DNA from: Caldinitratiruptor microaerophilus
GTDB lineage: Bacteria > Bacillota > Sulfobacillia > Symbiobacteriales > ZC4RG38
Assembly (NCBI RefSeq): GCF_025999835.1
Contig: NZ_AP025628.1
Location: forward strand, 2,604,001-2,668,000
Direction of reading: 5' to 3'
DNA: 64,000 bases
The notes under the pieces were generated by a model. The model worked only from the letters and a program-made list of their open reading frames with translations. It was not told where the DNA came from and made no database searches. Shown in pieces: positions 17,682 through 46,680 of this stretch. A program made the position numbers and the translations under genes. Every line of letters starts with the position of its first letter. Positions within the stretch are counted from its first letter, which is position 1.

Positions 17682-17884
17682 GTACTGAGTTGTTCGTTGT
17701 GGGTTGTGAGTTGTACGTTGTGCGGTGCGCGTATCCACGCCGCGGGTACCTTGCGCCTCCACGACGCGCCCAGGGGGCCGCGCCCGCCCCGGAGCCCCGC
17801 CCCACAAACGAACCCCCGCACTGCGAGCGGTGCGGGGGCCACGTTCCACTCACAACTCACAACTCACTGCTCACTGCTCACGAC
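17682..17884. repeat. Heptad-bounded intergenic element, short copy
   Basis: The left end (17682-17730) is seven consecutive 7-bp units on the plus strand: GTACTGA, GTTGTTC, GTTGTGG, GTTGTGA, GTTGTAC, GTTGTGC, GGTGCGC. The right end (17850-17884) is five units of the same kind on the minus strand: GTCGTGA, GCAGTGA, GCAGTGA, GTTGTGA, GTTGTGA. The ends thus face inward, with 119 bp between that hold a terminator hairpin. The right array covers the last codons of the M23 peptidase. The second, longer copy is at 46056-46680. Confidence 0.8.
17813..17838 (-). terminator. Terminator of the M23 peptidase gene
   Basis: A perfect 9-bp stem (17813-17821 with 17830-17838) and an 8-nt loop, inside the heptad-bounded element and 26 nt past the M23 stop. 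Confidence 0.65.
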
Positions 17885-18808
17885 TACTTTCCGGCTTTCC
17901 CACCGCTGCAGGTAGGGGAATGGGTTGAGGGTGGTGCCGTCCGGCCGGTACAGGCCCACGTGCAGGTGCGGGACGAACTTGCCCTCGGTGCCCTCCGGAC
18001 CGTACCCCGTGTTGCCCACGTAGCCGACCAGCTGCCCGGCCTTCACCCGGGCCCCTTCGTACAGGCCCGGCCCGTAGCCGTTCAGATGCGCGTAGTACAG
18101 GCTGATGCCGGGCGCGGCATCCAGGGCAACGGTGAGGCGCCACCCGCCATACTCGTTCCAGCCGATCCGCACCACCTTGCCCGAGCCCGCCGCGACCACC
18201 GGGGTGCCCTTCGGCGAGAGGATGTCGATCCCCTCGTGCCGGCGGCTCACCTGGCCGTCGGGCGACCAGCTCCGGGGGTCCCCGTAGTTGTCCTGCAGGG
18301 GCTCGTACTTGGCACCCTGCGGGAACGGGAAGACGAAGGCCGGGCTCGCCAGGGGATCGCCCTGGACGGCCCCGGCCTGCGGCCGGGTGCGGATGCCCAT
18401 CGTCTGACCGTCCCAGGTCACGGGGTAGCCGAACTGCGCGGCCACGAACCAGGTGGGCACGTAGATCTCGCCGCCGAGCAGCGCCGGCCGGCCGGGAGCC
18501 TCGAGGCGGGTCCCGTTGTGGAACGCGGTCCGGCTGTCCTGCCACAGCGCGAGCGCGTGCCCGGGCGCGGAAAGCTCCACCCGGCGGTCACCCGGGTCCC
18601 AGTGTGGGGTCAGGCCCAGGGCCCGGGCCAGCGGCCAGGTGGAGCTGAGAAGCTGCCCGTCGCGCAGGAAGGGTTTCGCCCCCGCCACCGGGGTACCGTT
18701 CACGACGACCTGGTACGGACCCGCTGCCAGCGCGGGAAGGGCAGGGAGCCAGGCAGCCACGGCAAGGGAAAGGATGCGGGCGAGACGGCGCCGCCACGCG
18801 TGGTGCAT
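17864..18808 (-). CDS. Secreted M23 peptidase with copper-amine-oxidase-like N-terminal domain
   Basis: 314 residues. ATG at 18808 follows AGGTGATC. A signal peptide (RILSLAVAAWLPALPALAAG) comes first, then a copper-amine-oxidase-N-type cell-surface domain (VVVNGTPVAGAKPFLRDGQLL, EIYVPTWFVAAQFGY). The LytM endopeptidase domain follows, with HEGIDI, YYAHLNGYG and PHLHVG, so the zinc ligands and HxH are present. It should cut peptidoglycan cross-links outside the cell, in growth or sporulation. Its last residues (VVVSSEQ) and stop are encoded by the heptad repeat, so the C-terminus has been replaced or extended by the element. Confidence 0.88.
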   Translation of the reverse strand: MHHAWRRRLARILSLAVAAWLPALPALAAGPYQVVVNGTPVAGAKPFLRDGQLLSSTWPLARALGLTPHWDPGDRRVELSAPGHALALWQDSRTAFHNGTRLEAPGRPALLGGEIYVPTWFVAAQFGYPVTWDGQTMGIRTRPQAGAVQGDPLASPAFVFPFPQGAKYEPLQDNYGDPRSWSPDGQVSRRHEGIDILSPKGTPVVAAGSGKVVRIGWNEYGGWRLTVALDAAPGISLYYAHLNGYGPGLYEGARVKAGQLVGYVGNTGYGPEGTEGKFVPHLHVGLYRPDGTTLNPFPYLQRWESRKVVVSSEQ

Positions 18809-19023
18809 GCGGATCACCTGCGGAGGATTTGGTAGGTACCGGGAAGACGGCCGTCTGTTCCCTGACAACCTCTATTCTATCTGGATGTGGTCAGTCGAGA
18901 CAATAACGGTTGATGAGGAAAATGTTCCCATGCGCGCATGAACGGGCGTGCAGCCTCCGCACGGAAAAAACGGCCGGTGGGCGGCGCCATCGCCGCCCAC
19001 CGGCCCGCGGCCGGCCGGGACGC

Positions 19024-19329
19024 TCACAGGAGCCCCATCTGACGGGCCTTCTTCAGCCGGTCGCTCATCATGTCCGGCGTCCACGGTGGGTCCCACACCA
19101 GCTCCACGTGGACGTCCTCCACGCCGGGCAGGCTCCGCAGCACGGCTTCCGCCTGCTGGGTGATCATCGGGCCGATCGGGCACGCCGGCGTGGTGAGGGA
19201 CATCGCCACGAACACCTTGCCGCCGTCGATCTGCACGTCGTACACGAGGCCGAGGTCGACCACGTTGATGTGGAGCTCCGGGTCCTTGACGACCTCGAGC
19301 GCCTTCATGACCTCCTCGCGGGTCGGCAC
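19024..19329 (-). CDS. sufT: SufT-like MIP18/DUF59 iron-sulfur assembly factor
   Basis: A 101-residue protein of the MIP18 family: TREEVMKALEVVKDPELHINVVDLGLVYDV, the SLTTPACPIGPMI motif with the conserved cysteine, and a C-terminal VWDPPWTPDMMSDRLK. DUF59 proteins help maturation of Fe-S proteins; as the last gene of the suf operon, 12 nt after sufB, it fits SufT. Confidence 0.9.
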   Translation of the reverse strand: MPTREEVMKALEVVKDPELHINVVDLGLVYDVQIDGGKVFVAMSLTTPACPIGPMITQQAEAVLRSLPGVEDVHVELVWDPPWTPDMMSDRLKKARQMGLL

Positions 19330-19341
19330 CCCACCACCCCC

Positions 19342-20745
19342 TCAGCCGACGGAGCCCTCCATCTCGAGCTCGATCAGGCGGTTCATCTCGACCGCGTACT
19401 CCATCGGCAGCTCCTTGGTGAAGGGCTCGATGAAGCCCTGGACGATCATCTGGGTCGCCTGCTGCTCGGAGATGCCGCGGCTCATGAGGTAGAACAGCTG
19501 CTCCGCCGAGACCTTGGACACCGTGGCCTCGTGCTCGATGGCCACATCCTCCTCCGCGATCTCCATGTAGGGGATCGTGTCGGTCTTGGACGCCGGGTCG
19601 AAGATCAGGGCGTCGCAGTTCACCTTCACCTTGCTGCCCTCGGCGCCCTTGTGCACCTGCACCAGGCCCCGGTAGGTCGTGCGGCCGCCGTCCTTGCAGA
19701 TGGACTTCGAGGTGATGGTGCTCGAGGTCCGCGGCGCCAGGTGGATCACCTTGGCCCCGGCGTCCTGGTGCTGGCCCTTGCCGGCGAAGGCGATGGAGAG
19801 GATGTCCGCCTTGGCCCCGGGCTCGCGCAGGATGACGGCCGGGTACTTCATGGTGACCTTGGAGCCGATGTTGCCGTCGACCCACTCCATGGTGGCGTCG
19901 GCGTACGCGACGGCCCGCTTGGTCACAAGGTTGTACACGTTGTGCGACCAGTTCTGGATCGTGGTGTAGCGGCAGCGGGCGCCCCGCTTCACGATGATCT
20001 CGACCACCGCGCTGTGGAGCGAGGAGGACGAGTACGTGGGCGCCGTGCAGCCCTCGACGTAGTGGACGAACGCACGCTCGTCGACGATGATGAGGGTCCG
20101 CTCGAACTGGCCCATGTTCTCCGCGTTGATGCGGAAGTAGGCCTGCAGGGGGATCTCCACGTGCACGCCCGGGGGCACGTAGATGAACGAGCCGCCCGAC
20201 CACACGGCGCTGTTCAGGGCTGCGAACTTGTTGTCACCGGGGGGGACCACGGTGCCGAAGTACTGCCGCACGAGGTCCGGGTACTCGCGGACGGCGGTGT
20301 CGGTGTCGACGAAGATGACACCCTTCTCCGCCAGGTCCTTGCGGATGTTGTGGTACACGACCTCGGACTCGTACTGGGCGCTGACTCCCGCCAGGAACTT
20401 GCGCTCGGCCTCGGGGATGCCCAGGCGGTCGAAGGTGCGCTTGATGTCCTCCGGCACCTCGTCCCAGCTGCGGCCCTTCTTCTCGACCGGCTTCAGGTAG
20501 TAGTAGATGTCGCCGAAGTCGATCTCACTCAGGTCTGCGCCCCAGGTGGGCATGGGCTTCTTCAGGAAGATGTCCAGCGCCTTGAGCCGGAACTCCCGCA
20601 TCCAGTCGGGCTCGTTCTTGTGCCGGGAGATCTGCTCCACGATCTCGCGGTCCAGGCCCTTGCGGGTCTTGAAGACGAACTGCTCCGGGTCACGGAAACC
20701 GTACTTGTATTCTGTGCCCAGGATCTCCAGGGCTTCCTTGGCCAT
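19342..20745 (-). CDS. sufB: Fe-S cluster assembly protein SufB
   Basis: 467 residues, the usual SufB length. It shows the SufB/SufD beta-helix core with [47 protein letters not shown] and [25 protein letters not shown] in the conserved C-terminus. SufB is the scaffold subunit of SufBC2D on which clusters are built in the cytoplasm. Located 6 nt after sufU. Confidence 0.97.
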
Positions 20746-20751
20746 GTGTGT

Positions 20752-21213
20752 TCACGACCTCCCCTCGGGGTCGAGCCCGCTCATCCCCATCTCCACCGCG
20801 TTCCAGGCCAGCGTGGCGCATTTGATCCGCACCGGGTACCGGGCCACCCCCTGGAGGCTCTGGATCTCCCCCAGGTCCCGGAACGGCCCGGCGTCCCCCC
20901 GCATCATGGCCCGGAACCGCTCCATGATGCGGCGGGCTTCCTCCAGGGTCTTGCCCTTCAGGGCCTCGCTCATCATGGAGGCGGACGCCATGCTGATGGA
21001 ACACCCACGGCCCTGCCACCGCACCTCTCGGAGGCGGCCCTCCTCGACCTTGAGCTGCAGGTCGATCGTGTCCCCGCAGGTCGGGTTCTCGAGGTGCACC
21101 GTGGTGTCCGGGTCCGGTAGCAGCCCCCGGTTCCGGGGACGGCTGTGGTGGTCCAGGATCACCTGCTTGTAGAGCTCCTGCAGCGGGATGCTGTACCTGT
21201 CTTCAGACGACAT
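20752..21213 (-). CDS. sufU: SufU, sulfur-transfer partner of SufS
   Basis: 153 residues. The zinc/sulfur site is formed by NPTCGD, GRGCSISMAS and RIKCATLAWN; the insertion typical of SufU versus IscU lies between the second and third cysteines. SufU accepts persulfide sulfur from SufS in Bacillota. ATG at 21213 overlaps the end of sufS by 11 nt, which argues for translational coupling. Confidence 0.95.
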   Translation of the reverse strand: MSSEDRYSIPLQELYKQVILDHHSRPRNRGLLPDPDTTVHLENPTCGDTIDLQLKVEEGRLREVRWQGRGCSISMASASMMSEALKGKTLEEARRIMERFRAMMRGDAGPFRDLGEIQSLQGVARYPVRIKCATLAWNAVEMGMSGLDPEGRS

Positions 21214-22429
21214 GGCGGAAGAACTCCCTTGCCCGCGCCAGGCCGGCGACCAGGCGGTCGATATCTTCCTCCGTATTATACACGTAGAACGACGCCCGGT
21301 TGGTGGCAGGCACTCCCAGCACCTCGCGGTGCAGCGGCTGCGTGCAGTGGTGGCCGGCCCGGATGGCAATGCCCTCGCCGTCCAGGACGGTGGCCACGTC
21401 GTGCGGGTGCACGTCTCCCAGGTTGAAGGCCACCAGCCCCGCCCGGGGCTCGCGGGGGCCGTAAACGGTGACGTCGGGCAGCTCGGCCAGGCGCTCGAGC
21501 GCGTACCGCACCAGCGCCTCCTCGTGCTCCCGGATGGCGGCCGGTCCGCCGATGGCGCGGATGTAGTCGACCGCCGCCGCCAGGCCCACCGCACCGGCGA
21601 CGTTGGGCGTGCCGGCCTCGAACTTCCACGGCAGGTCGTTCCAGGTGGCCCCCTCGTAGGTGACCGACCGGATCATCTCGCCCCCGCCCAGGAGCGGCTG
21701 CATCCGCTCCAGGAGCTCGCGCTTGCCGTAAAGGACGCCGATCCCCATCGGCCCCATCATCTTGTGGCCGGAGAAGGCGAGGAAGTCGGCGTCCAGCGCC
21801 TGCACGTCCACCGGCATGTGGGGCACGGACTGGGCGCCGTCCACCACGACGATGGCCCCGGCGGCGTGGGCGGCGGGGATGATCCGCTCGATCGGGTTGA
21901 TCGTGCCCAGGGTGTTCGAGGCGTGGGCGATGGCCACCACCTTGACGCCGTCGAGCATCTCGTCCAGCCGGCGCATGTCGAGCGTCCCGTCCGGCAGGAG
22001 GGGGAAGTAGCGCAGGCGGGCCCCCGTGCGGCGGGCGACGAGCTGCCAGGGCACCAGGTTCGAGTGGTGCTCCATCGGGGTGAGGAGCACCACGTCCCCG
22101 GGGTGCAGGTGGTCGAGGCCCCAGGCGTAGGCGACCAGGTTCAGCGCCTCGGAGGCGTTGCGCACGAAGACGCAGGTCGCCGGGTCGGGAGCGCCGATGA
22201 AGGCGGCCACCTTCGCCCGCGCCTCCTCGTATGCGGCGGTCGCGGCCTCGCCCAGGGTGTGGATCGAGCGGTGCACGTTCGCGTTGATGGTCTCGTAGTA
22301 CCGCGCGATGGCGTCGATCACCGCCCGCGGCTTCTGCGTCGTCGCCGCGTTGTCGAGGTAGACGAGCGGCTTCCCGTTCACCTCGCGCGCCAGGATCGGG
22401 AAATCCTGGCGGATCTTCTCAATGTTCAT
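21203..22429 (-). CDS. sufS: Cysteine desulfurase SufS
   Basis: 408 residues, class V aminotransferase fold, PLP-dependent. Seen: LDNAATTQKP, the PLP-lysine segment FSGHKMMGPMG, and the persulfide cysteine in RAGHHCTQPLHREVLG. It takes sulfur from cysteine and delivers it to SufU. ATG at 22429 overlaps the sufD stop (ATGA). Confidence 0.97.
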   Translation of the reverse strand: MNIEKIRQDFPILAREVNGKPLVYLDNAATTQKPRAVIDAIARYYETINANVHRSIHTLGEAATAAYEEARAKVAAFIGAPDPATCVFVRNASEALNLVAYAWGLDHLHPGDVVLLTPMEHHSNLVPWQLVARRTGARLRYFPLLPDGTLDMRRLDEMLDGVKVVAIAHASNTLGTINPIERIIPAAHAAGAIVVVDGAQSVPHMPVDVQALDADFLAFSGHKMMGPMGIGVLYGKRELLERMQPLLGGGEMIRSVTYEGATWNDLPWKFEAGTPNVAGAVGLAAAVDYIRAIGGPAAIREHEEALVRYALERLAELPDVTVYGPREPRAGLVAFNLGDVHPHDVATVLDGEGIAIRAGHHCTQPLHREVLGVPATNRASFYVYNTEEDIDRLVAGLARAREFFRHVV

Positions 22430-23727
22430 AGGCCCAACTTCCCGTCGATCAGACTCTCGATCTCGGAACGAAGGCCAGTACCCTGGGCCGCCTCGAGGAG
22501 CGGCTGCAGGAAACCCATCACGATCAGCCGCTTGGCCCGGTTCTCCGGGATGCCGCGAGAGCGCAGGTAGAAGAGCTCCTCGTCGTCCACCCGGCCGCTC
22601 GTGGCGGCGTGGCCGCCCCGGACCACGTCGTCGTCGTCGATGAAGAGGCTGGGGATCGAGTCGACCCGGCAGCCCCGGTTGAGGAGCAGGGCGTTCTCCC
22701 GCAGGAAGCACTCGCAGCCCTTGGCCCCCCGCATGATGTGGCCGACGCCCCGGAAAACCGCCCGGGCACTCCCGGCCAGCACGCCCCGCCCCAGGATGTC
22801 GCCGGCGCTGCGGTGGCTGCCCGGCACGTGCAGGTCCTCGGCGACCAGGTCGATGTGCTGGTCGCCGCTCCCGAAGAACACCAGCTTCAGGTTGCCCTGG
22901 GCCCCGGGCTCGTCGAGCACCGTGCGCTGCTCGGAGCGCACCAGGCTGCCCCCGAAGTCGCCGATCAGCCAGTCGACCCGGGCGTCCTTCTGCACCAGGG
23001 CCCTGCGGGTCGTGAAGCTCCACACCCCGGTGCCCCAGTTCTGGACCGAGGCGTAGCGGACCTGCGCGCCCGGCTTCGCCCAGATCTCGACCGCGCCCGC
23101 CTGGACGGTCCGGTCCGGGACCGGCGCCGATCCGACGTACTGGGCGACCGTCACCTCCGCCCCCGGCTCGACCACGACGAGCGTGTGGCCGAAGAGGCCC
23201 GCCCCGGCGCCGCCCGCCCACTCCACGGTCTGGATGGGCTCCTCGACCCGGACGCCGGCGGGCACGTGGATGAAGACGCCACCGCGCCAGATGGCGGCGT
23301 GGAGGGCGACGAAGATGTGTTCGTCCGGCCGGATCACGCGGGACATGAGATGCTCCCGCACGAGGTCCGGATGCTCCCTGGCGGCGGTCTCCAGGTCGGT
23401 CACGATCACGCCGTGCGGCAGCCCGGCAGGTCGGGCCGTCACGACGCCGTTCTCCAGGACAAGGGCCTTGCCGGAGTCTGCCACCTTGCGCAGGCGATCC
23501 GGCAGCGGGGCGGCGGGGCCTTCGGGGGCGTCGGCCACCACCTCGGCCAGCCGGACCGGGCTCACGTCCGTGCGCCGCCAGTCCTCGTCATGCGGGCCGG
23601 GCAACCGCAGGCTCTGGTACACCTCCCACGCCTTCGCCCGGGCCTCGGTCAGCCACTCCGGTTCCCCCCGCTCCCGGGATCGGGCCACCAGGGCCTCCCG
23701 GGAGAGTTCTCCCAGCAGGACAGGCAT
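22426..23727 (-). CDS. sufD: Fe-S cluster assembly protein SufD
   Basis: 433 residues from ATG 23727; a GTG at 23757, overlapping the sufC stop, would add ten residues, but GGAGGAGG sits about 10 nt before the ATG. It shares the beta-helix with SufB (RPDEHIFVALHAAIWRGGVFIHVPAGV) and the C-terminal DEELFYLRSRGIPENRAKRLIVMGF. It forms the SufBC2D complex. Ends in a 4-nt overlap with sufS. Confidence 0.95.
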   Translation of the reverse strand: MPVLLGELSREALVARSRERGEPEWLTEARAKAWEVYQSLRLPGPHDEDWRRTDVSPVRLAEVVADAPEGPAAPLPDRLRKVADSGKALVLENGVVTARPAGLPHGVIVTDLETAAREHPDLVREHLMSRVIRPDEHIFVALHAAIWRGGVFIHVPAGVRVEEPIQTVEWAGGAGAGLFGHTLVVVEPGAEVTVAQYVGSAPVPDRTVQAGAVEIWAKPGAQVRYASVQNWGTGVWSFTTRRALVQKDARVDWLIGDFGGSLVRSEQRTVLDEPGAQGNLKLVFFGSGDQHIDLVAEDLHVPGSHRSAGDILGRGVLAGSARAVFRGVGHIMRGAKGCECFLRENALLLNRGCRVDSIPSLFIDDDDVVRGGHAATSGRVDDEELFYLRSRGIPENRAKRLIVMGFLQPLLEAAQGTGLRSEIESLIDGKLGL

Positions 23728-23753
23728 CCTCCCGAATCCTCCTCCGAGATCGT

Positions 23754-24503
<750 letters not shown>

Positions 24504-24530
24504 AGTCCTGTCCCCTTTCGCCCGTTTTCA

Positions 24531-24561
24531 CGGTATTAACGTGATATAACGTGATATAATA
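24531..24561. promoter_or_regulatory. Divergent suf/sufR operator-promoter with direct repeats
   Basis: Two direct copies of AACGTGATATAA lie at about 24538-24560 and a weaker third start (CGGTATTAACGTG) just before. The second copy contains an extended -10, TGATATAAT (TATAAT at 24555-24560), reading towards the SufR-like gene. The region is the only AT-rich island between sufC and sufR and is the natural binding site of the repressor. No good -35 is visible in either direction. Confidence 0.65.
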
Positions 24562-24591
24562 GAGGAATCCATCGGCCAAGGCGGTGAACAC

Positions 24592-25287
24592 ATGCTGCGG
24601 GACCCATTCAAGGTGGCCGCCGTCCTGGGCGACCCCACCCGCTACCGGATCTTCGAGCACATCGTCCGCAGGGCTCCCGGCGGCGTGACCGCTCAGGAGA
24701 TGGCCCAGCGCTTCTCCCTCCACCCGAACGTGGCCCGCATGCATCTGGCCAAGCTCCAGCGAGCCGGCCTCCTCTTCTCCCGGCCGGATCACCGGGGGCG
24801 GAGCGGCCGTCCCGTGCACCTCTACTTTCCGACGGGCCGGGCCGCCACGTTCGCGGTGCCGAGCCGCAACTTCGAACTGCTGGCGGAACTCCTCTCGCTG
24901 GCGCTGGCCGAGTTCGGCCCGGCCGGCCTCGAGGCCCTGGACCGCGTGGGGGCTGCGTTCGGCCGTCAGGTGGCGGCGGAGGCCGCCCGGGCCGCCGCGC
25001 CTTCCCCGGGCTCGGCCCCGGGCCGGGGGCTGGAAACGGCCGCAGAGCAACTGCGCCAGCAGGGGATCGAGATCGAGGTGGCCGGGGAAGCGGGCGCCAC
25101 GCGGATCACGGTCACCAACTGCGTGTTCCACGAGCTGGCGCTCTCCCACCCGGAACACGTCTGCCGGCTCTGCGCCGCCGTGATGCACGGCCTCGTGAGT
25201 GCCTTCAGCGCCACGGCGGATATCCGGGTGCTGGAGAGCCTGCCGCGGGGCGGGGAACGCTGCGAGTTCGCGGCCACCCACCGGTGA
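24592..25287 (+). CDS. sufR: SufR-like iron-sulfur transcriptional repressor
   Basis: 231 residues. Residues 5-75 are an ArsR/DeoR-type winged helix (DPTRYRIFEHIVRRAPGGVTAQEMAQ, HPNVARMHLAKLQRAGLL). The C-terminal half has TNCVFHELALSHPEHVCRLCAAVMHG, whose Cys residues resemble the [4Fe-4S] ligands of SufR. Transcribed divergently from the suf operon across an 88-bp region with repeated boxes. SufR represses suf genes when its cluster is intact; that role is inferred from family and position. Confidence 0.88.
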   Translation: MLRDPFKVAAVLGDPTRYRIFEHIVRRAPGGVTAQEMAQRFSLHPNVARMHLAKLQRAGLLFSRPDHRGRSGRPVHLYFPTGRAATFAVPSRNFELLAELLSLALAEFGPAGLEALDRVGAAFGRQVAAEAARAAAPSPGSAPGRGLETAAEQLRQQGIEIEVAGEAGATRITVTNCVFHELALSHPEHVCRLCAAVMHGLVSAFSATADIRVLESLPRGGERCEFAATHR

Positions 25288-25449
25288 GCCGGTGCCAGGC
25301 GACCCTCCGGCCGGCAAGCCAACCGAGAATGAGTATTAGACTCGTTCTACGACGTGAGCATACCACAGGGTAGCCGTGGAATCAACACTGCGAAGCCCCG
25401 GGGCGTGCTTGCACCGTACGGCCCTTGGCGCCGTGCGTCAGGTCCGTCA

Positions 25450-25461: not shown

Positions 25462-25472
25462 AGACACCAGGG

Positions 25473-25500: not shown

Positions 25501-25528
25501 ATACGAATGCACCCAGGAGGTGGTCCCG

Positions 25529-33014: not shown

Positions 33015-33034
33015 CGTTGCCAGGATTGCCAACC

Positions 33035-33240
33035 GAACCCCTCCGGTGCCGCCTGCCACGGGCGGAGAATAGGGAACCGGGTGCAAGTCCCGGGCGGTCC
33101 CGCCACTGTAACCGGGGAGCAAACCGGGCCCGGCAGTCCGGCTTCGAGCCGCTGCCCGGCCAAGCCACTGGAGGACTTCCTCCGGGAAGGCGCCCGGGGC
33201 GCGAGGAGCCGGAAGCCAGGAGACCTGCCGGAGGAGGTGT
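33035..33240 (+). promoter_or_regulatory. Cobalamin (B12) riboswitch
   Basis: All conserved blocks of the cobalamin aptamer are visible in order: GGTGCC (33045-33050), GGAGAATAGGGAA (33063-33075), GGTGCAAGTCCCGGGCGGTCC, CCGCCACTGTAA (33100-33111) and the B12 box AGCCAGGAGACCTGCC (33214-33229). It precedes a transcription terminator and cobT, so B12 or adenosyl-cobalamin is expected to switch cobT off. Confidence 0.95.
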
Positions 33241-33301
33241 CCGGCCACGGGGCACGGTGTCTGCCCCGGGGCCGGGGTTCGCTGGGGATGATGGTAAAGT
33301 T

Positions 33302-37517: not shown

Positions 37518-37524
37518 GGACGTG

Positions 37525-38790: not shown

Positions 38791-39063
38791 CTACCGCACC
38801 AGCGCGGCCCGGCGCACCCGGCGGACCGGGATGTTCGCCACCAGGACCGCCTGGTGTTCTGCCTGGGACAGGCGGACCTCCATGTTCTCCGTGTCGATCT
38901 CCATGTACTCGCTGATCACGTGGATCAGCTCTTCCTTCAGCCGCTCCAGGAATTGCGGCGTGACGCTGGCCCGGTCGTGGACGAGCACCAGGCGAAGCCT
39001 CTCCTTCGCGATCTCCGCGCTCGGCGCCTCCCGTCCCAGCACTCTGGCGATCAGGTCGAACAC
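38791..39063 (-). CDS. minE: Cell-division topological specificity factor MinE
   Basis: 90 residues, GTG start. It has the N-terminal membrane/MinD-binding part (MFDLIARVLG, AKERLRLVLVHDRASVTPQFLERLKEELI) and the C-terminal anti-MinCD dimer part. MinE drives MinCD oscillation that keeps the division septum at mid-cell. Placed 15 nt after minD. Confidence 0.92.
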   Translation of the reverse strand: MFDLIARVLGREAPSAEIAKERLRLVLVHDRASVTPQFLERLKEELIHVISEYMEIDTENMEVRLSQAEHQAVLVANIPVRRVRRAALVR

Positions 39064-39078
39064 AGCCCCCCGCCCCCT

Positions 39079-39879
39079 TCACCGGGTCCCGAAGCCGAAC
39101 GCCCGCTTGAGCCTGGCCAGAAGGCCCTCGTCTGTCTCCAGGTCCATGATGGGCACCTCTTCGCCCATCAGGCGGCGGGTGATGTTGCGGTAGGCCTCCC
39201 CGGACCGGGAGTTGCGGTCGAGCACAGCCGGCTCGCCCCGGTTGGTCGTCACGACGATCTGCTCGTCTTCCGGCACCACACCCAGGAGGTCGATGGCCAG
39301 GATCTCCAGCATGTCGTCGATCGCCAGCATGTCGCCCTTGCGGACCATCCCCGGGCGGTAGCGGTTGATGATCAGCATCGGCCGCTCTTTCTCCGCGGCC
39401 TCCAGCAGCCCGACCACCCGGTCGGCGTCCCGCAGGGCGGACATCTCCGGGGTGGTGACGATGATCGCCTTCTCCGCCCCGGCGATGGCGTTCTGGAACC
39501 CCTGCTCGATCCCTGCGGGGGAGTCGATCAGCACCCAGTCGAACTCCTGCCGGAGCTCCTCCGCCAGGTCCCGCATCTGGTCCGGGCGGACGGCGGTCTT
39601 GTCCTTGGTCTGGGCGGCCGGCAGGAGGAACAGGTTGTCGAACTGCTTCGACTTGATCAGGGCCTTCCGGTACTTGCAGTGGCCGTTGGCCACGTCGACC
39701 AGGTCGTAGACGATGCGGTTCTCCAGCCCCAGGAGAAGGTCGAGGTTCCTGAGCCCGATGTCCGCGTCCACCAGGCAGACCTTTTGCCCGCGCATGGCGA
39801 GCCCGGTCCCCAGGTTGGCCGTGGTCGTGGTCTTGCCGACGCCACCCTTGCCCGAGGTGACCACGATCACCTGTCCCAT
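39079..39879 (-). CDS. minD: Septum-site-determining ATPase MinD
   Basis: 266 residues. Deviant Walker A SGKGGVGKTTTTANLG, VDADIGLRNLDLLLG, DWVLIDSPAGIEQGF, and a C-terminal amphipathic helix (LLARLKRAFGF) that binds the membrane. ATG at 39879 follows GAGGAGGGAC. Confidence 0.96.
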   Translation of the reverse strand: MGQVIVVTSGKGGVGKTTTTANLGTGLAMRGQKVCLVDADIGLRNLDLLLGLENRIVYDLVDVANGHCKYRKALIKSKQFDNLFLLPAAQTKDKTAVRPDQMRDLAEELRQEFDWVLIDSPAGIEQGFQNAIAGAEKAIIVTTPEMSALRDADRVVGLLEAAEKERPMLIINRYRPGMVRKGDMLAIDDMLEILAIDLLGVVPEDEQIVVTTNRGEPAVLDRNSRSGEAYRNITRRLMGEEVPIMDLETDEGLLARLKRAFGFGTR

Positions 39880-39913
39880 CGGAGTCCCTCCTCGTCCGGC
39901 CGCTCGGCCCTCG

Positions 39914-40606
39914 CTACGCCGGGCTGTACCGCCCCAGGAGCGGCCGCCCCTCCACCACGATTTGCCCGTTCGCCACCCGGGCGACCTCCGGCACCCCGGC
40001 TCCGGCCGGATCGGCGTCCGGCGGACGGCCCACGTACCGGCCGATGCGGAGCTGGGTGGGCTCCAGCCGCACGGCCGCCACGATGGCCGTCTCGTCGCCG
40101 GCGGCGCCGGCGTGCGCCACCCCGCGCAGGGCACCGAGCACTACGATGTGCCCCGTGGCGACCACCTCGGCACCAGGGTTCACGTCCCCCACGATGACCA
40201 CGTCCCCCGGGTGCCGCAAGGTCTGCCCGGACCGAAGGGTGCGGGTGACGACCAGCGGCGGGGCGGACCGTGCCGGGCCGAACCCGACCGCGCCGGGCGC
40301 ATCCGGCTCGACCCGGCGGGGGGAGGGCGGCTGCGCCGAAGGGAGCAGCCGGGTGAGATCCTCCCCTTCGCGGATCTGGCGGGGTACCAGTCCGTGCTGG
40401 CGGAGCAGGGCCACCAGCTGGGCCCGCTCCTCCTCCCCGAGCTGGCGCTTCCCGACGGCGACGGTCACCTCCGCACCGCGGAAGAACCCGCCGCTCGCTT
40501 CGAGCTTCTCGGCCAGCGCACCCATGAGCGAGTCCCAGCCCGGATGGTCCTCAAGCACGATCAGCAGGCCGTCCCGGGTCCCGCGAAACCATACTTCCTG
40601 CCGCAT
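39914..40606 (-). CDS. minC: Septum-site-determining protein MinC
   Basis: 230 residues. The N-terminal FtsZ-inhibiting domain (residues 1-100) is followed by a Pro-rich linker and the C-terminal beta-helix TLRSGQTLRHPGDVVIVGDVNPGAEVVATGHIVVLGALRGVAHAG, the conserved MinC_C sequence. ATG at 40606 gives the expected MRQEVWFRGTRDGLLIVLED start. Confidence 0.95.
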   Translation of the reverse strand: MRQEVWFRGTRDGLLIVLEDHPGWDSLMGALAEKLEASGGFFRGAEVTVAVGKRQLGEEERAQLVALLRQHGLVPRQIREGEDLTRLLPSAQPPSPRRVEPDAPGAVGFGPARSAPPLVVTRTLRSGQTLRHPGDVVIVGDVNPGAEVVATGHIVVLGALRGVAHAGAAGDETAIVAAVRLEPTQLRIGRYVGRPPDADPAGAGVPEVARVANGQIVVEGRPLLGRYSPA

Positions 40607-40787
40607 CCAGACTCCCTGCTTTGGCTCGTTGCGGGGACCGCACCCGGCAGGCTCCGGGCACGGGCTTGATCGGTACTTCGTCAACCGAGCGCCAAATCCT
40701 CCCTCTACGAGTAAAAAAGAGTAGCGTGCGCGGCCGAGTGCCATTGCCACCGGAAACCTGTCACGACGACCGCCGCGCCCGGACGGG

Positions 40788-41354
40788 TCACCGGGCCGCC
40801 CCGCGCCGGGACGGGGACGGCCGGGACCCGGGGGCCGGTGCGGGGCGCACCGCCACCGCTCCCCGCGGGTCGGGCCGGAAGTGGGTGTACCGCCCCAGGA
40901 GCCACAGGTACACGAGGGTGGTGAGGCCGGCAGACAGGATGGCGCCCGGCAGGACGGTCCCGCGCAGCGCCTGGAGGGGGGGGAGGGGCCAGCCGAAGTA
41001 GAGCAGGACGCCCAGTGTCAGCCCGCCCGTGAGCAGCCCCCCCGCCGCCCCGCCCACCACCGGCAGGAGGACGTTCTCCTTCACCACGAACCGCTCGGCC
41101 TGGCCGGCGACGAGCCCTGCCAGGCCGAGCGTGAGCACGTGCAGTCCCATGAGCCGCCCGATGGCCACGTCGAGCGCGGCGCCGGCCAGCGCCCCGGCCC
41201 CGAGCCCGACGGCCGGCCCGAAGAGGAGCCCGTAGCTCACCACCACCGCCAGGAGCACGTCCGGCACCACGCCCCACAGGCGCACGAAGCTGGCGGCCGT
41301 GGTCTGGACGAGGAAGGCCACACCGAGAACCCCGAGCAGGTGCCCGTACCTCAC
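40788..41354 (-). CDS. mreD: Rod shape-determining protein MreD
   Basis: 188 residues, five to six membrane segments, with FGPAVGLGAGALAGAALDV typical of MreD. GTG at 41354 overlaps the mreC stop (GTGA). The C-terminal tail is basic and Pro-rich. Confidence 0.92.
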   Translation of the reverse strand: MRYGHLLGVLGVAFLVQTTAASFVRLWGVVPDVLLAVVVSYGLLFGPAVGLGAGALAGAALDVAIGRLMGLHVLTLGLAGLVAGQAERFVVKENVLLPVVGGAAGGLLTGGLTLGVLLYFGWPLPPLQALRGTVLPGAILSAGLTTLVYLWLLGRYTHFRPDPRGAVAVRPAPAPGSRPSPSRRGAAR

Positions 41355-42214
41355 GGATTGTCCACCCCGGTCCCCTCGTCCGGCCCGGCCAACACCACCT
41401 GCACGAAGTCCAGGCGCGTAAAGTTCACCGCCGGCCGCACGGTGGCAAACTTGACGAGGTTGTTCTCCCGCATCCCCACGGTCTCGACGGTCCCGACCAC
41501 GAGCCCACGCGGCAGCACTGCGCCGAGGCCGCTGGTCACCAGCGCGTGGCCGGGCTCCACCTGGGCGTCGCGGTTGAAGGGAAACTCCGCGACCGCTCCC
41601 TCGCTCCCCCGGCCCTGCACCCGGCCGTCCTCACCGGTGACCGCGTCGAGGATGGACGCCTGGAAGTCCGGATCGATCAGGAGCTTCACGGTCGAGGTGA
41701 AGGGAGTCACCCGCTCCACCTTGCCGACCAGGCCCTCGCTGTTCACCACCGCCATGTTGACCCGGACGCCGTCCCGGCTGCCCCGGTCGATGACCACCGA
41801 CGAGAACCACGCGGAAGGGCTGCGGACGATGACCTGCGCCGGCAGAAGGGAGTAATTCGAGCGGGCCTTCAGACCGAGTTCCGAGCGCAGGGCCCGGTTC
41901 TCGTTCTCGAGGTCCGCGTACAGTGCCTGCAGCTGCCGGAGCTGGGCCAGTTCGGCCCGCAGCTGGGCATTCTCTTCCCGCAGCCGCAGGATCTCCTGGA
42001 TCGCCTGGGCGGTACCGCGGACGCGAGCCGAGGTCCAGCCGGCGACCGACTGGACCGGGTAGAGCAGTGTGGCCAGGATGTTCTCCACCGCCGTGGAGGC
42101 GGGGCGCTCGCGGGCTGTCGCGACCATGAGCGCGAACAGGACGACCACCGTCACCAGCCCCGCTACCAGGGCCCGCACACCCCGGGCCCCGTGGGGCGCG
42201 GGACGTGGCAGCAT
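41351..42214 (-). CDS. mreC: Rod shape-determining protein MreC
   Basis: 287 residues: one N-terminal membrane segment (ALVAGLVTVVVLFALMVA), a coiled coil (LRLREENAQLRAELAQLRQLQALY) and the MreC beta domain (VIDRGSRDGVRVNMAVVNSEGLVGKV, VTSGLGAVLPRGLVVG). It links MreB filaments to the wall-synthesis enzymes. Confidence 0.95.
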   Translation of the reverse strand: MLPRPAPHGARGVRALVAGLVTVVVLFALMVATARERPASTAVENILATLLYPVQSVAGWTSARVRGTAQAIQEILRLREENAQLRAELAQLRQLQALYADLENENRALRSELGLKARSNYSLLPAQVIVRSPSAWFSSVVIDRGSRDGVRVNMAVVNSEGLVGKVERVTPFTSTVKLLIDPDFQASILDAVTGEDGRVQGRGSEGAVAEFPFNRDAQVEPGHALVTSGLGAVLPRGLVVGTVETVGMRENNLVKFATVRPAVNFTRLDFVQVVLAGPDEGTGVDNP

Positions 42215-42231
42215 GGCGACTCCTCCCGGCG

Positions 42232-43257
42232 TCAGGCGCGGGCCGCCCGCCGCAGGATGTGCATTTCGTCGAGGACCTTGCCGGTCCCCTTGACGACGCA
42301 GAGCATGGGTTCGTCGGCCACGTGCACCGGCATGCCCGTCTCCCGGGACACCAGCACGTCAAGGCCCTTCAGGAGCGAGCCGCCGCCGGTCATCACGATG
42401 CCCCGGTCCATGATGTCGGCAGCCAGCTCCGGCGGCGTGTTCTCGAGGGTCACCTTGATGGCCTCGATGATGGCGGCCACAGGCTCCGCGAGGGCCTTGC
42501 GCACCTCCTCGCTCGTGATGCGGAGGGTGCGCGGCAGGCCCGTCACCAGGTCGCGTCCCCGGACCTCCATCTGCTCGTCCTGGCCGGTGGGGTAGGCGGA
42601 GCCGATGGCGATCTTGACCTCCTCGGCCGTGCGCTCGCCGATGAGCATGTTGTACGTCCGCTTCACGTACTGCACGATGGACTCGTCCATCTCGTCCCCG
42701 GCGATCCGGATCGACCGGGACGTGACCAGGCCGCCGAGGGAGATGATGGCCACCTCGGTGGTACCGCCGCCGATGTCGACGACCATGCTCCCGGTCGGCT
42801 CCTCCACCGGCAGCCCGGCGCCGATGGCCGCCGCCATCGGCTCCTCGATCACGTACGCCTCCCGCGCCCCGGCCTGCAGGGCCGCGTCCTGCACGGCCCG
42901 GCGCTCGACCCCCGTGACGCCGGAAGGCACCGACACCACCACGCGGGGCCGGAACGGCGTGCGGCGGGGCTGCGCCTTGTTGATGAAGTACTTGAGCATG
43001 GTCTGCGTGATGTCGAAGTCGGCGATCACGCCGTCCTTCATCGGCCGGACGGCGATGATGTTCCCGGGCGTCCTGCCGATCATCTGCTTGGCGTCCAGAC
43101 CCACGGCCATGGGCGCCTTGGTGTCCCGGTCGATGGCGACCACCGACGGCTCATACAGAACAATGCCCCGGCCTTTCACGTAGACCAGGGTGGTCGCTGT
43201 ACCCAGGTCGATCCCCATGTCCCGGGCGAACAGGTTGAAGATGGACACGGCCTGCAT
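42232..43257 (-). CDS. mreB: Rod-shape actin-like protein MreB
   Basis: 341 residues of the MreB/actin fold: [56 protein letters not shown] and [17 protein letters not shown] at 43257 lies very close to AAAGGAG; the GTG three codons on is a possible alternative start. It guides lateral wall growth beneath the membrane. Confidence 0.96.
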
Positions 43258-43273
43258 GACTCCTTTCTCGGCG

Positions 43274-43981
43274 TCAGAGCAGAACGCCCGGGCCGTACCG
43301 TTCCCGGAGGCTGACGAATTGCCGATCGCCGATCACGATGTGGTCCAGGACCTCGATCCCCATGATCCGGCCCACCTCCGCCAGGCGGCGGGTCACCTCC
43401 CTGTCCTCGGGACTGGGCGTGGGATCGCCGCTGGGGTGGTTGTGGACCAGGATGACCGAGTGGGCGCTGCGGCGGATGGGTCCCTTGAACACCTCGCGGG
43501 GGTGGACGACGGACGTGCTCAGGCTGCCGACGGACACCGTCTCGACGCCCAGGACGCGCCCCCGCACGTCCAGCAGGACCACCCGGAACTCCTCCCGGTC
43601 CAGGCGGCGCATCTCCTCCATGAGCAGCGCCGCGACCTCGGCGGCCGTCCGCACGCTCGGCCGCGCCGCCCGGGCCCGCCACAGGCGCGTCCCCAGCTCC
43701 ACGGCCGCCTTCAGGCGGGCGATCTTGGCCGGGCCGAGCCCTGCCACGCGCCGGAGTTCCTCCGCCGGAGCCTCGGCGAGGTAGTCGAGCGGGTGCCCGC
43801 CCCCCTCGCCCAGGAGAAGCAGTTCCTGCGCCACCTCCACCGCCGTGACCCCCGGCCGGCCCGAGTCGAGGAGCACCGCCAGGAGCTCGGCGTCGGTCAG
43901 CGCCCGGGGCCCCTGCGCCAGCAGGCGCTCCCGGGGACGCTCGGAGGGCGGCAGCGACTTCAGGGTCACGCCCTTCCGCAA
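43274..43981 (-). CDS. radC: RadC/DUF2466 JAB-domain protein
   Basis: 235 residues. An N-terminal helix-hairpin-helix domain ([36 protein letters not shown]) is followed by a JAMM domain: Glu in [12 protein letters not shown], then [20 protein letters not shown]. The family name RadC is historic; a DNA-repair role is doubtful. TTG at 43981 has GGGAGGGA 8 nt upstream. Confidence 0.93.
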
Positions 43982-44027
43982 GGGGAGTGTCCCTCCCGGG
44001 GGGCCACCGCCCCCCGCGGCCGCCCAC

Positions 44028-44603
44028 CTACAGCACGGTCAAGCCGAACTCCTCCAGAAGGCGGGCGACGCGGCCGAGAGGCAGCCCGACTACATTATAG
44101 TAACACCCGAAAATACGCTCGACCAGCAGGGCTCCGAGCCCCTGCACGGCATAGGCCCCGGCCTTGTCAAGCGGCTCCCCGCTGCGGACGTACCACTCCA
44201 CCTGGGCGCGCGTCAGAGGCCGCATCCAGACCGTGGTCTCCTCGTGTTCCACCCGTTTCCTCCCGCCCGGGGCGACCAGGGCCACGCCGGTGATCACGAC
44301 GTGGGACCGGCCCTGGAGCCGCTCGAGCATGCGCACCGCTTCGGCCTCGTCCCGTGGCTTGCCCAGCACGGCCCCATCCAGGACGACGATCGTGTCGGCC
44401 CCGAGGACCAGGGCGTCCGGTTCCCGGGCCGCCACGGCCTCCGCCTTGCGCAGGGCCAGCGCGCGGGCGAGGTCCGCTGGCTCGCGGGTCCCGTCCCCCG
44501 GGTCTTCCGGCACACCGGAGGGCACCACCTCGAACGACAGGCCGACCTGCTCGAGCAGGCTCACCCGCCGGGGCGATGCCGATGCCAGAACGAGACGCGT
44601 CAC
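44028..44603 (-). CDS. maf: Maf nucleotide pyrophosphatase
   Basis: 191 residues. Typical LVLASASPRRVSLLEQVGLSFEVV start, ADTIVVLDGAVLGKPRDEAEAVRMLERLQGRSHVVITGVAL in the middle, and GAYAVQGLGALLVERIFGCYYNVVGLPL near the end. Maf proteins hydrolyse dTTP/UTP-type or modified nucleoside triphosphates and are linked to septum control; the maf-radC-mreB order is classical. Confidence 0.95.
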   Translation of the reverse strand: MTRLVLASASPRRVSLLEQVGLSFEVVPSGVPEDPGDGTREPADLARALALRKAEAVAAREPDALVLGADTIVVLDGAVLGKPRDEAEAVRMLERLQGRSHVVITGVALVAPGGRKRVEHEETTVWMRPLTRAQVEWYVRSGEPLDKAGAYAVQGLGALLVERIFGCYYNVVGLPLGRVARLLEEFGLTVL

Positions 44604-44626
44604 CTATACCCCTTTCCGATCGGACG

Positions 44627-44848
44627 TCAGCTTCGCAGAGCCCAGACCAGCGCCAGGGCGAGTCCGACGGCCCCTGCGACCGAGATCCTGAGCTGCAGCT
44701 CGAACGAGAAGCCCGCGACCGCCAGGAGCAGGCGCCCCAGGTCGTACGAAACGTGCAGGAACGGGACCGGCAGGGCCTGTCCCACCACGTTCCCCACGAC
44801 CGCTCCCGCGACGCCGACAACCAACACCAGACCGAGCGAGCGACGCAC
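44627..44848 (-). CDS. DUF4321 membrane protein
   Basis: 73 residues with two membrane segments (LVLVVGVAGAVVGNVVG and LRISVAGAVGLALALVWAL) around LPVPFLHVSYDLGRLLLAVAGFSFEL, the DUF4321 pattern. GTG at 44848 after GGAGGAGG. DUF4321 genes regularly sit just before maf in Bacillota; function unknown. First gene of the shape/division operon. Confidence 0.85.
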   Translation of the reverse strand: MRRSLGLVLVVGVAGAVVGNVVGQALPVPFLHVSYDLGRLLLAVAGFSFELQLRISVAGAVGLALALVWALRS

Positions 44849-44998
44849 TCCGGGCCTCCTCCGGGTACCGCCAGCGGGCGGCGCCCACGGGTTTCGCTTG
44901 CGATGCTGGTGAGATTCGTGGCCGGGGCCAAGATCTCCTGGCGGCGGCCACCCGCGCGGACGGCACTTGAAGGACCGGGGCGTGCACCACTTTTTTCT

Positions 44999-45027
44999 AT
45001 TTTACCCAGGCTACGGCCAGAATGCAA
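44999..45027 (-). promoter_or_regulatory. Promoter of the DUF4321-maf-radC-mre-min-rodA operon
   Basis: On the minus strand TTGCAT (45027-45022), 17 bp, TAAAAT (45004-44999), in the only AT-rich patch of the gap. The leader to the DUF4321 GTG is about 145 nt. Confidence 0.65.
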
Positions 45028-45029
45028 CA

Positions 45030-45048
45030 GGGGCCCCCGGCGGGCCCC
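45030..45048 (-). terminator. Terminator after the SPOR-domain gene
   Basis: GGGGCCC (45030-45036) and GGGCCCC (45042-45048) form a 7-bp stem about 35 nt after the stop of the SPOR gene and just upstream of the next promoter. Confidence 0.5.
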
Positions 45049-45081
45049 CGTGCAGGGACGTGGCGGCGCCGGACCCGGCGG

Positions 45082-45921
45082 CTACGCGCCGGACGTCCAG
45101 CTCCGGAACTGCTCCACCAGGGCCAGGTAGCCCGACATGGCGGCGCGGTACTGGTCCTCCCCGCCCCCCTGAGCGAGCACGCCGATCTGGCCGCCGTTCT
45201 GCACGGCCTTTTCGACCATGGCCACGAGGCTCCCGACGACGGGGTCGGACGTGTGCGGGCGCAGTTCGTCGGCCACGCCCTGCAACTGGCTCGTGTACTG
45301 AGTGAGGCGATCGGCGCCGGTGGCCTGGCCGGTGGCGTACCGGTCCCACCACGCCGCGGCTTCGTGGAGGTATCCGCTCAGCAGGCCGAGGCCCTTGTCG
45401 AACGCAGCCTGGGCAGCGGCGTTCTGCGGGCGCACGGCAGGCTCGGCGGCGATCGACACCGGATTGGCGTACAGGGACAGCTTGGTCGGTCCGCGGTACG
45501 CCGACTCCGCCTCCGCCTTGGCCGCCATGGCACCGTCCCGGCTCCCGTAGGCGCCGACCACGACCTTGTACCACTCACCGGCGTGGGACACGGCAGCGGG
45601 GAGGCCGTTCTGCTCCAGATCCGCCGCGGCCCGGCGCGCCGCCTCGGGTGACTTCAGGGCGTGTGCCTGGAGGAAGTAGACCGTGAGCGGCCGCCGGGAC
45701 GTGTCCAGCGGCGCCTGCGCGGACGGCATCCCGGCCATCTCCCCGCCACCCGGAGACCCGGCCGGGTTGGTCCCGCTGCTGGCCGGCTCCTGGCTGGCCC
45801 ACCGGTCGCTCAGCCAGTTCCCGAGCCACCACGCGCCGGCCAGGGCGAGGACAGTGACGATGACGAAACCGCCGCCCCACCGGTCCTTCCACCTGCTGTC
45901 CGACCGGCCAAATCGCTGCAT
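45082..45921 (-). CDS. SPOR-domain membrane protein
   Basis: 279 residues. One N-terminal membrane segment (VIVTVLALAGAWWLGNWL), a short linker, then a SPOR domain (RPLTVYFLQAHALKSPEAARRAAADLEQNGLPAAVS, YKVVVGAYGSRDGAMAAKAE) that binds denuded septal peptidoglycan. The C-terminal 110 residues are helical and unfamiliar (DRYATGQATGADRLTQYTSQ). It may be a division- or spore-cortex-associated factor. Confidence 0.85.
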   Translation of the reverse strand: MQRFGRSDSRWKDRWGGGFVIVTVLALAGAWWLGNWLSDRWASQEPASSGTNPAGSPGGGEMAGMPSAQAPLDTSRRPLTVYFLQAHALKSPEAARRAAADLEQNGLPAAVSHAGEWYKVVVGAYGSRDGAMAAKAEAESAYRGPTKLSLYANPVSIAAEPAVRPQNAAAQAAFDKGLGLLSGYLHEAAAWWDRYATGQATGADRLTQYTSQLQGVADELRPHTSDPVVGSLVAMVEKAVQNGGQIGVLAQGGGEDQYRAAMSGYLALVEQFRSWTSGA

Positions 45922-46055
45922 CCCTCTCCCCTCCTGTCCGGCACGGCGGCCGGGGTCGCTCCGGCCCCCGTCCTCATGGTCTGCCGGGAGGGCGGCGTGC
46001 AGGTTCGTCCGCCCCGTCCCACAAATGCGTATGACCCACGCTCGCCGCTCATGCT

Positions 46056-46680
46056 GTTGTGAGTGGTGCGTTGCGCGTGGTGAGGGCGCACGCCGTGGGT
46101 GAACACGCGCGGACCTGGGAGGTTCGGAGCAGGGGATTCTCTCTCCGGCGCCGCCCGGAAGGCGAGCAGACCATGCTCCGGCCGGGGGTTGCAGCCGTAT
46201 GTTGCCAGAGATGGTATAGTCTCCCTCAAAGAGTCAGCCGATGCGAGTCTGCCGGGACGCCAGACCCGCATTTCTTGCGCCTCACGACCCGACCAAGATT
46301 GACATAATGCCTGATCCGGAGACGCGCTGGCCTGTCCGGGTCGACACAAGATGCATTTCCGGTGCACCGATTGCCTCACGTACCATCAGGCGGAACGGGG
46401 TCTCGCTCCGCAAACCGAAGATGTCCGACGCCGTGTTGGGGCAGGGACGGCCCGGCCGCGCCCCGGGGTCCGCCAGCGGGACGGGCCGGCCGGGTCCCGT
46501 GGCCGGATGACGCGCCCCTCCTGCGCTCTGTCCCCGACCCGCGACCCCTGCTTCCTCCAGGCGCACCCGGGTGGGGCCCCTCACGCCGGAGCACGGGTGG
46601 ACCCGAGGCCCGCGCGTGTTCACCCACACCGTGCGCGCTCACAACTCACAACTCACTACTCACTACTCACAACTGATAAC
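46056..46680. repeat. Heptad-bounded intergenic element, long copy
   Basis: The left array (46056-46083) reads GTTGTGA, GTGGTGC, GTTGCGC, GTGGTGA on the plus strand. The right array (46639-46680) is six units, reading on the minus strand GTTATCA, GTTGTGA, GTAGTGA, GTAGTGA, GTTGTGA, GTTGTGA. Inside the arrays, an 18-bp perfect inverted repeat lies at 46095-46112 and 46610-46627. The 500-bp core is less GC-rich and has no recognised gene. The element fills the gap between folC and the SPOR gene and probably holds the SPOR promoter. Confidence 0.8.

What the first reader, a model, noticed from the sequence alone, without database searches (positions are those of the whole stretch)
17682..46680. 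Two intergenic elements bounded by inverted arrays of a degenerate 7-bp unit
At 17682-17884 and 46056-46680 the ends are arrays of GTTGTGA-like heptamers that face inward: plus strand on the left, minus strand on the right. The two right-hand arrays agree in 33 of 36 bases. Each element lies between two co-directional minus-strand genes (M23 peptidase and LonC; folC and the SPOR gene). Heptamer repeats are known in other bacteria such as cyanobacteria, but inward-facing pairs bounding a variable core (119 bp and 555 bp) look like a non-autonomous mobile or regulatory element family. No transposase is in the window.
Basis: partly seen in the sequence, partly recalled or inferred. Interest (0 to 1): 0.75.

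Follow-up and report, generated by a model that had tools for sequence, protein, structure and literature searches.

The report
Heptamer repeat arrays at gene ends
Short arrays of a repeated 7-letter DNA word sit where genes stop in this bacterium, sometimes facing each other as a hairpin; they look more like repeats that grow and change in place at gene ends, a little-studied feature of many bacteria, than like a jumping element.

Summary
In detail: both places carry inward-facing GTTGTGA-type arrays (13 matches in the window, 1.27 expected). The genome search found 19 such loci: 5 inward pairs, 14 solo arrays. What most share is position: in 14 of 19 the array begins at the 3' end of the upstream gene, in sense orientation, and contains or overlaps its stop codon. 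Among 72 arrays from other bacteria, 31 lie at a sense stop codon and 1 at an antisense one. At one Mesorhizobium site 15 of 20 orthologs carry paired arrays after the same stop codon; the unit (7 or 8 nt) differs between species while each species' two arms match. That fits repeats growing in place by slippage and arm-to-arm copying, not an element with fixed ends. The folC-SPOR site lacks arrays in all five comparable relatives. Against this, some sequence is shared between loci here, so copying between sites also occurs. Heptamer repeats with 3'-end placement and convergent pairs are published (PMC4692102); searches found no report of this unit or its turnover. New variant of a known kind.

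The parts
17682..17723 (+). left heptamer array of element 1 (6 units, degenerate)
17724..17849 (.). 126-nt core of element 1, with a GC-rich hairpin (arms 17813-17824 / 17827-17838)
17850..17884 (-). right heptamer array of element 1 (5 units); overlaps the 3' end of the M23-type peptidase gene, whose stop codon (17864-17866) lies in the array
17864..18868 (-). M23-type peptidase gene ending inside the array (start of the ORF uncertain)
46056..46083 (+). left heptamer array of element 2 (4 units)
46084..46119 (+). inner left arm of element 2, complementary to the inner right arm; holds GTGAACACGCGCGGAC (46099-46114), also found at the solo locus beside the ruvA gene
46120..46602 (.). core of element 2
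46603..46638 (-). inner right arm of element 2 (GTGAACACGCGCGGGC at 46608-46623)
46639..46680 (-). right heptamer array of element 2 (6 units); overlaps the 3' end of folC, whose stop codon (46656-46658) lies in the array
46656..47882 (-). folC gene ending inside the array

Best explanation
The two elements belong to a genome-wide set of GTTGTGA heptamer arrays that mostly sit at the 3' ends of genes. Proposed working: (1) a heptamer array starts at, or is copied to, a stop codon; (2) it grows and shrinks in 7-nt steps by replication slippage; (3) it survives there because in sense orientation the unit puts a stop codon in every reading frame, so the upstream protein gains at most about seven residues, while the same array inside a gene would cut the protein short; (4) in a minority of loci a second, reverse-complement arm is made from the first, most simply by template switching during replication, giving an inward-facing pair that can fold into a stem-loop in the transcript between two genes. 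Shown: position, orientation, host proteins with complete ends in the best-modelled cases, paired arms, array-free relatives at one site, and (in Mesorhizobium) turnover of the unit with matched arms. Inferred: slippage, template switching, and that the arrays of this genome behave as those in Mesorhizobium. A benefit to the cell (a stem-loop shielding the upstream message, or a back-up stop ladder) is possible but not shown.
For: 19 loci, 24 arrays, 5 inward pairs, 0 outward. In 14 of 19 loci the stop codon of a co-directional gene lies in the array (13) or overlaps its first base (L036). Host proteins with full-length models keep their ends: RpoD matches its model to the last position with its last residue, RpoN to 434/434, RuvA to 202/202, FolC to 395/400. 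Other bacteria: a sense stop at the array's 5' end in 31 of 72 arrays against 1 of 72 for the antisense control; in two Bacteroidota genomes 20 of 42 against 2 of 42. Neighbouring arrays: inward 5/16/17, outward 0/1/2, same strand 0/1/3 in own / GTDB / Bacteroidota loci. Mesorhizobium site: 20 orthologs extracted, 14 with a strong stem; own arms pair at -57.1 on average, swapped arms at -40.4, and none of 20,000 permutations reaches the own mean. Units there include ATAGTGA, GTAGGGGA, GCAGTAG, GGGCAGTA and GCGAATA (read), and in 11 of 17 species the stop codon is in phase with the array. In a 400-kb sample of one Bacteroidota genome many units coexist; of 28 neighbouring array pairs 20 are inverted-matched and 3 direct-matched, against 41 of 374 random pairs matching in either orientation.
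Against: Within this genome all 19 loci share one unit (they were found with it), variants recur in the same order between loci (4 locus pairs share a run of four units in order, 0 in reversed order; 13 against 7 for runs of three), and an inner motif is shared by both arms of element 2 and the ruvA locus: some copying between sites seems to occur, which slippage in place does not give. In the Bacteroidota genome several loci share a palindromic core (by eye). 5 of 19 loci are not at a gene end. The stop-codon phase in Mesorhizobium is one site in related species, and 6 of 17 are out of phase. The permutation test is not corrected for relatedness, and only 4 of 14 left arms pair best with their own right arm. 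With greedy ORF calling the own-genome count falls to 8 of 24 arrays, with 10 arrays wholly inside an ORF; I take these for spurious ORFs at 71% GC. In the unbiased samples of G000 (4 arrays of period 7-8: 1 at a stop, 2 at an ORF start) and G032 (1 array: at a start, none at a stop) numbers are too small to support the rule.
Confidence: 0.55

Rival explanations
1. A non-autonomous mobile element family (MITE-like): the inward arrays are terminal inverted repeats moved by a transposase encoded elsewhere in the genome.
For: 19 dispersed loci; folC-SPOR site without arrays in 5 of 5 comparable relatives; shared variant order and a shared inner motif in three places at two loci; shared palindromic cores between arrays in G040 (by eye).
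Against: 14 of 19 loci are solo; in the array-versus-downstream test only L034 and L048 stand out, and no solo array does; cores look unrelated (by eye); no direct repeat of 4 nt or more immediately beside either window element (inspection); at one Mesorhizobium site the unit changes between species while arms stay matched.
Confidence: 0.17
2. Selected regulatory RNA or DNA element: gene-end stem-loops or protein-binding arrays that stabilise, process or terminate the upstream message, or act on translation of the next gene.
For: Sense, 3'-end placement in many bacteria; stem kept while sequence turns over in Mesorhizobium; both window elements fold better than shuffles (z -2.9 and -5.8); MacGregor proposed translational regulation for TAACTGA arrays (PMC4679880, abstract).
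Against: 14 of 19 loci have no detectable second arm and thus no such stem; no Rfam match at the window elements; the gap to the next co-directional gene varies from -3 to 149 nt by the gene finder; host genes named are of many kinds; template switching alone can keep arms matched (PMC8794818, abstract).
Confidence: 0.2
3. REP/BIME-type elements spread by a Y1 (RAYT) transposase.
For: Solo and inverted-pair copies at gene 3' ends is the REP/BIME layout (recalled).
Against: No Y1_Tnp match in G000, nor in G001, G031 and G038, in a search that rang in 6 of 10 genomes and 5 of 14 controls; the unit is a 7-nt tandem repeat, not a single palindrome of 20-40 bp (size from the listing of PMC3733652).
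Confidence: 0.05
4. Chance or low-complexity sequence.
For: Many weak tandem repeats in this GC-rich window (65 rows at the lowest score).
Against: 13 matches against 1.27 expected, 0 of 100 shuffles; inward bias and stop-codon placement.
Confidence: 0.01

Closest known systems
GGGAATC / GGGGA(C/T)T heptamer repeats of Xanthomonas and Nostoc (Rehm et al. 2015, PMC4692102; sections 10, 14, 16 and passages read)
   Same: 7-nt tandem units, mostly intergenic, in Xanthomonas on average 28 nt from the 5' neighbouring ORF against 160 nt to the next one, 70 and 75 convergent inverted pairs in the two genomes, length varies between species at the same place
   Different: different, G4-forming unit; about as many lie on the strand opposite to the flanking genes; 83% of the Xcc repeats are found again as G-rich repeats in the same context in Xac, whereas the Mesorhizobium site examined here changes its unit
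TAACTGA direct repeats of Beggiatoaceae, Cyanobacteria and some Bacteroidetes (MacGregor 2015, PMC4679880; abstract, passages and section 10 read)
   Different: in the main genome mostly just before start codons and almost never inverted (one indirect repeat); proposed role is translational
Heptanucleotide hairpin in the P6b loop of the Nostoc trnL intron (PMC3488679; passages read)
   Same: degenerate heptamers that base-pair into a hairpin and vary in copy number; two classes of unit at one site
   Different: inside an intron, one site
Heptanucleotide elements of Geobacter metallireducens (PMC2700814; passages read)
   Same: tandem heptamers as dispersed elements
   Different: described as predicted regulator-binding or RNA elements; different units
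REP/BIME and GTAG/CGTC-tagged palindromes (PMC3733652; search listing only)
   Same: gene-end location, solo and inverted copies (recalled)
   Different: single palindromes, not tandem heptamers; no Y1 match here

Membership tests
Heptameric simple sequence repeats (Xanthomonas/Nostoc, Beggiatoaceae kind) | several tandem units of 7 nt, dispersed in the genome | tested here: met
   19 loci, 24 arrays of about 4-11 units
Heptameric simple sequence repeats (Xanthomonas/Nostoc, Beggiatoaceae kind) | intergenic, close to the upstream gene | tested here: met
   14 of 19 loci begin at the upstream stop codon
Heptameric simple sequence repeats (Xanthomonas/Nostoc, Beggiatoaceae kind) | convergent inverted pairs occur | tested here: met
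   5 of 19 loci
MITE | terminal inverted repeats bound every copy | tested here: not met
   14 of 19 loci are solo arrays
MITE | target-site duplication | tested here: not met
   no direct repeat of 4 nt or more immediately beside either window element (inspection); the other 17 loci were not examined for it
MITE | copies share internal sequence | tested here: inconclusive
   element 2 and the ruvA locus share an inner motif; the other cores were compared by eye only
MITE | autonomous partner with the same ends | not tested
   only Y1 transposases were searched
REP/BIME | Y1 (RAYT) transposase in the genome | tested here: not met
   PF01797 has no match in G000; control rang in 5 of 14
23S rRNA intervening-sequence (IVP/S23) element | PF05635 protein | tested here: inconclusive
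   no match in G000, but the control was silent too
Known structured RNA (Rfam) | covariance model match at gathering score | tested here: not met
   none at either element

The most novel reading that the evidence does not exclude
Across bacteria, stop codons act as seeds for 7-8 nt tandem repeats: the stop codon is itself the first unit, the array grows downstream, and a reverse-complement arm is copied from it, so that gene-end stem-loops of quickly changing sequence but lasting structure arise again and again, at the same place with different units in sister species. The GTNGTGA arrays of this genome would be one such lineage.
Probability: 0.3. Interest if true: 0.75.

Novelty: new variant of a known kind. 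Interest (0 to 1): 0.5.

Why it matters
A 2007 survey, as cited in PMC4692102 (passages), found heptamers over-represented among simple repeats in many bacterial genomes, and PMC4679880 (passages) reports them as the commonest long class in most genomes; no agreed reason is given there. A tendency in where they sit (at the stop codon, sense strand, inward when paired) and a site where the unit turns over while the arms stay matched give that old question a concrete test system: related Mesorhizobium species at one intergenic site. It also warns annotators that inverted arrays of this kind need not be mobile elements.

Tried and rejected
Four-helix-bundle/S23 protein link (prompted by the Coxiella IVS paper PMC4990558, passages read): its heptamers differ, and PF05635 is not found in G000, though the control was silent. 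RAYT/REP link: no Y1 match in G000. Structured RNA family: none at the elements. Stop-codon phase lock as a universal rule: seen at the Mesorhizobium site (11 of 17), but the offsets of stops lying before the array elsewhere show no clear phase. A complementary arm hidden beside solo arrays: not clearly found, the best solo being L049 at z -2.4. Array-free site at the M23-Lon locus: a strong match of the Lon-type gene only in G004 (61%), and I recognised no M23 gene in the short flank held, so not comparable. The reversed-pattern control (17+19) is contaminated, because arrays of GTGGTGA match the reversed pattern; I did not use it. A guess at the organism (Symbiobacterium, recalled) was tried by accession and taxonomy and led nowhere. 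Exact-string search of papers for array sequences: 0 papers. Searches for prior art or mechanism: in an open-access library only.
Full report
What is there. Each of the two places holds a plus-strand and a minus-strand array of GTTGTGA-like heptamers facing inward: 17682-17723 with 17850-17884, and 46056-46083 with 46639-46680. In the window GTNGTGAGTNGTGAG matches 13 times with up to two mismatches, all here, against 1.27 expected and none of 100 shuffles reaching 13. The inverted repeat of element 2 extends past the heptamers (83% over 64 nt). As RNA in the direction of the flanking genes both fold better than shuffles (z -2.9, 200 shuffles; z -5.8, 20 shuffles). No Rfam family matches either element at its gathering score.

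Genome-wide. The window lies in an unnamed 3.6-Mb genome (G000). The 22-nt pattern with up to 3 mismatches gives 74 matches, which I grouped into 19 loci; the weakest of these could be chance. A weight-matrix scan finds 24 arrays in them. Five loci are inward pairs, none outward, and 14 are solo. When each array is tested for pairing with the next 600 nt, L034 and L048 stand out (z -7.2, -4.7); the two window elements score weakly by this measure (z -1.7, -2.2), L046 not at all (z 0.7), and of the solo loci the best is L049 at z -2.4. So the pair with a core is the minority form.

Position is the shared feature. With a simple composition-based gene finder, in 14 of 19 loci the stop codon of a co-directional gene lies inside the array (13) or overlaps its first base (L036), at the array's 5' end in sense orientation. 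Exceptions are L031, L032, L033, L038 and L046. 14 loci lie between co-directional genes, 4 between convergent ones, 1 between divergent ones. Host proteins with good full-length models keep their C-termini: RpoD reaches the last model position with its last residue, and RpoN, RuvA, HisIE, PotC and CymR reach or come within five positions of the end of a model. The array itself codes for at most about seven residues. Some proteins (YqeK, FolK) have tails of about 20 residues beyond their models, so for them the native end is unknown. A greedy ORF method finds only 8 of 24 arrays at a stop and puts 10 inside ORFs, which I take for spurious ORFs at 71% GC.

Other bacteria. Of 72 arrays with enough flank, 31 have the stop codon of a sense ORF of at least 100 codons at their 5' end and 1 has an antisense stop at the other end; 17 lie wholly inside an ORF. 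In 20 loci of two Bacteroidota genomes the figures are 20, 2 and 8 of 42. Neighbouring arrays within 700 nt are inward in 16 and 17 cases, outward in 1 and 2, same strand in 1 and 3. The scan was seeded with this unit, so it says nothing about how common this unit is relative to others. G039 and G040 have 840 and 475 overlapping pattern matches. Relatives of G000: 1 of 30 other genomes has a match at up to one mismatch (G003, one place).

Unit turnover. Around one Mesorhizobium locus (L117) I searched 41 genomes, the query's own among them; 38 had some match, many only to the repeat itself, and 20 gave the same gene pair with a readable intergenic region. By my reading 15 of the 20 carry paired arrays directly after the stop codon of the upstream gene, but the unit differs: ATAGTGA/GTAGTGA, GTAGGGGA, GCAGTAG, GGGCAGTA, GCGAATA and others. 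L185, L188 and L189 have no arrays, L181 and L183 only traces. For the 14 with a stem below -30 (6 of 20 were left out: L174, L181, L183, L185, L188, L189) own arms pair at -57.1 kcal/mol on average and swapped arms at -40.4; none of 20,000 permutations reaches the own mean, but relatedness is not corrected, and only 4 of 14 left arms rank their own right arm first. In 11 of 17 species the stop codon is in phase with the array.

Unbiased samples. In 400 kb of G040, period 7 is the commonest array length from 2 to 14 (26 arrays; next is period 8 with 12) and shows many units. Of 28 neighbouring array pairs 20 are inverted-matched and 3 direct-matched, against 41 of 374 random pairs. 21 of 38 arrays of period 7-8 touch a stop codon, 8 an ORF start, 5 lie inside ORFs; 15 of the 21 are richer in G than in C in the direction of the gene. 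In 400 kb of G000 only this unit appears at period 7 (2 arrays), with two unrelated period-8 arrays; in 400 kb of G032 there is one period-7 array. These two samples are too small to test the rule, and what they hold (G000: 1 of 4 at a stop, 2 of 4 at an ORF start; G032: 0 of 1 at a stop, 1 of 1 at a start) does not support it.

Signs of copying between sites. In G000 four locus pairs share a run of four units in the same order and none in reversed order; for runs of three it is 13 against 7. GTGAACACGCGCGGAC, in one copy with G for the last A, occurs in both arms of element 2 and at the ruvA locus; the looser pattern with one mismatch has 3 further matches and 2 in the control. In G040 several loci share a palindromic core between arrays of varying units (by eye). 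So growth in place is not the whole story.

Array-free site. folC and the following gene are adjacent in G001, G002, G003, G004 and G006, with intergenic regions much shorter than the 734 nt here and no arrays; in G013 the following gene looks different (read). Element 2 was therefore gained in the lineage of G000, or lost in the others. The M23-Lon site could not be compared.

Reading. The arrays are best seen as heptamer repeats that persist at gene ends, where their all-frame stop codons do little harm, and that now and then acquire an inverted arm. Template switching is a known way to create and keep hairpins (PMC8794818, abstract), and polymerase slippage has been proposed for heptamers (as cited in PMC4692102 and PMC4679880, passages). 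That these processes act here is inference. Prior art covers the kind: Xanthomonas/Nostoc heptamers with bias to the upstream ORF and convergent pairs, and Beggiatoaceae TAACTGA arrays with stops in all frames. No paper in the held open-access library contains the array strings searched, and the listings and passages from searches showed no report of unit turnover with matched arms.

Noticed in passing
window 33027-33246 (+): Cobalamin riboswitch, 99.2 bits against a gathering score of 31.5.
   Followed up: no
L277, L288, L289, L292, L200, L202, L207 (G040): One Bacteroidota genome carries a set of elements made of tandem 7-8 nt arrays (GTTATGA, GAGAGGT, AAGTCCT, AAGGGGC, GGTGTTTT and others), several around palindromic cores, some of which share GCTCTTGG- or TTGCTATTGG-like stems; units and cores seem to go together (by eye).
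   Followed up: partly
window 46079-46093 and 46681-46695: 14 of 15 nt of the coding end of folC, just outside the right array, recur inverted at the inner end of the left array; possible footprint of a template switch.
   Followed up: no
L219-L222, L224: The intergenic region after folC looks conserved between G003 and G004 and between G001 and G002 (by eye); no Rfam family found in L219-L221.
   Followed up: no
L205 2857-3098 (-): Cobalamin riboswitch about 1.2 kb from a heptamer pair in G040.
   Followed up: no
L098, L089, L106, L058: Other tandem heptamers (GTTTGCA, GCCTCAA, GGCGAAT, GCGAATA) lie next to GTNGTGA-type arrays in several bacteria.
   Followed up: no
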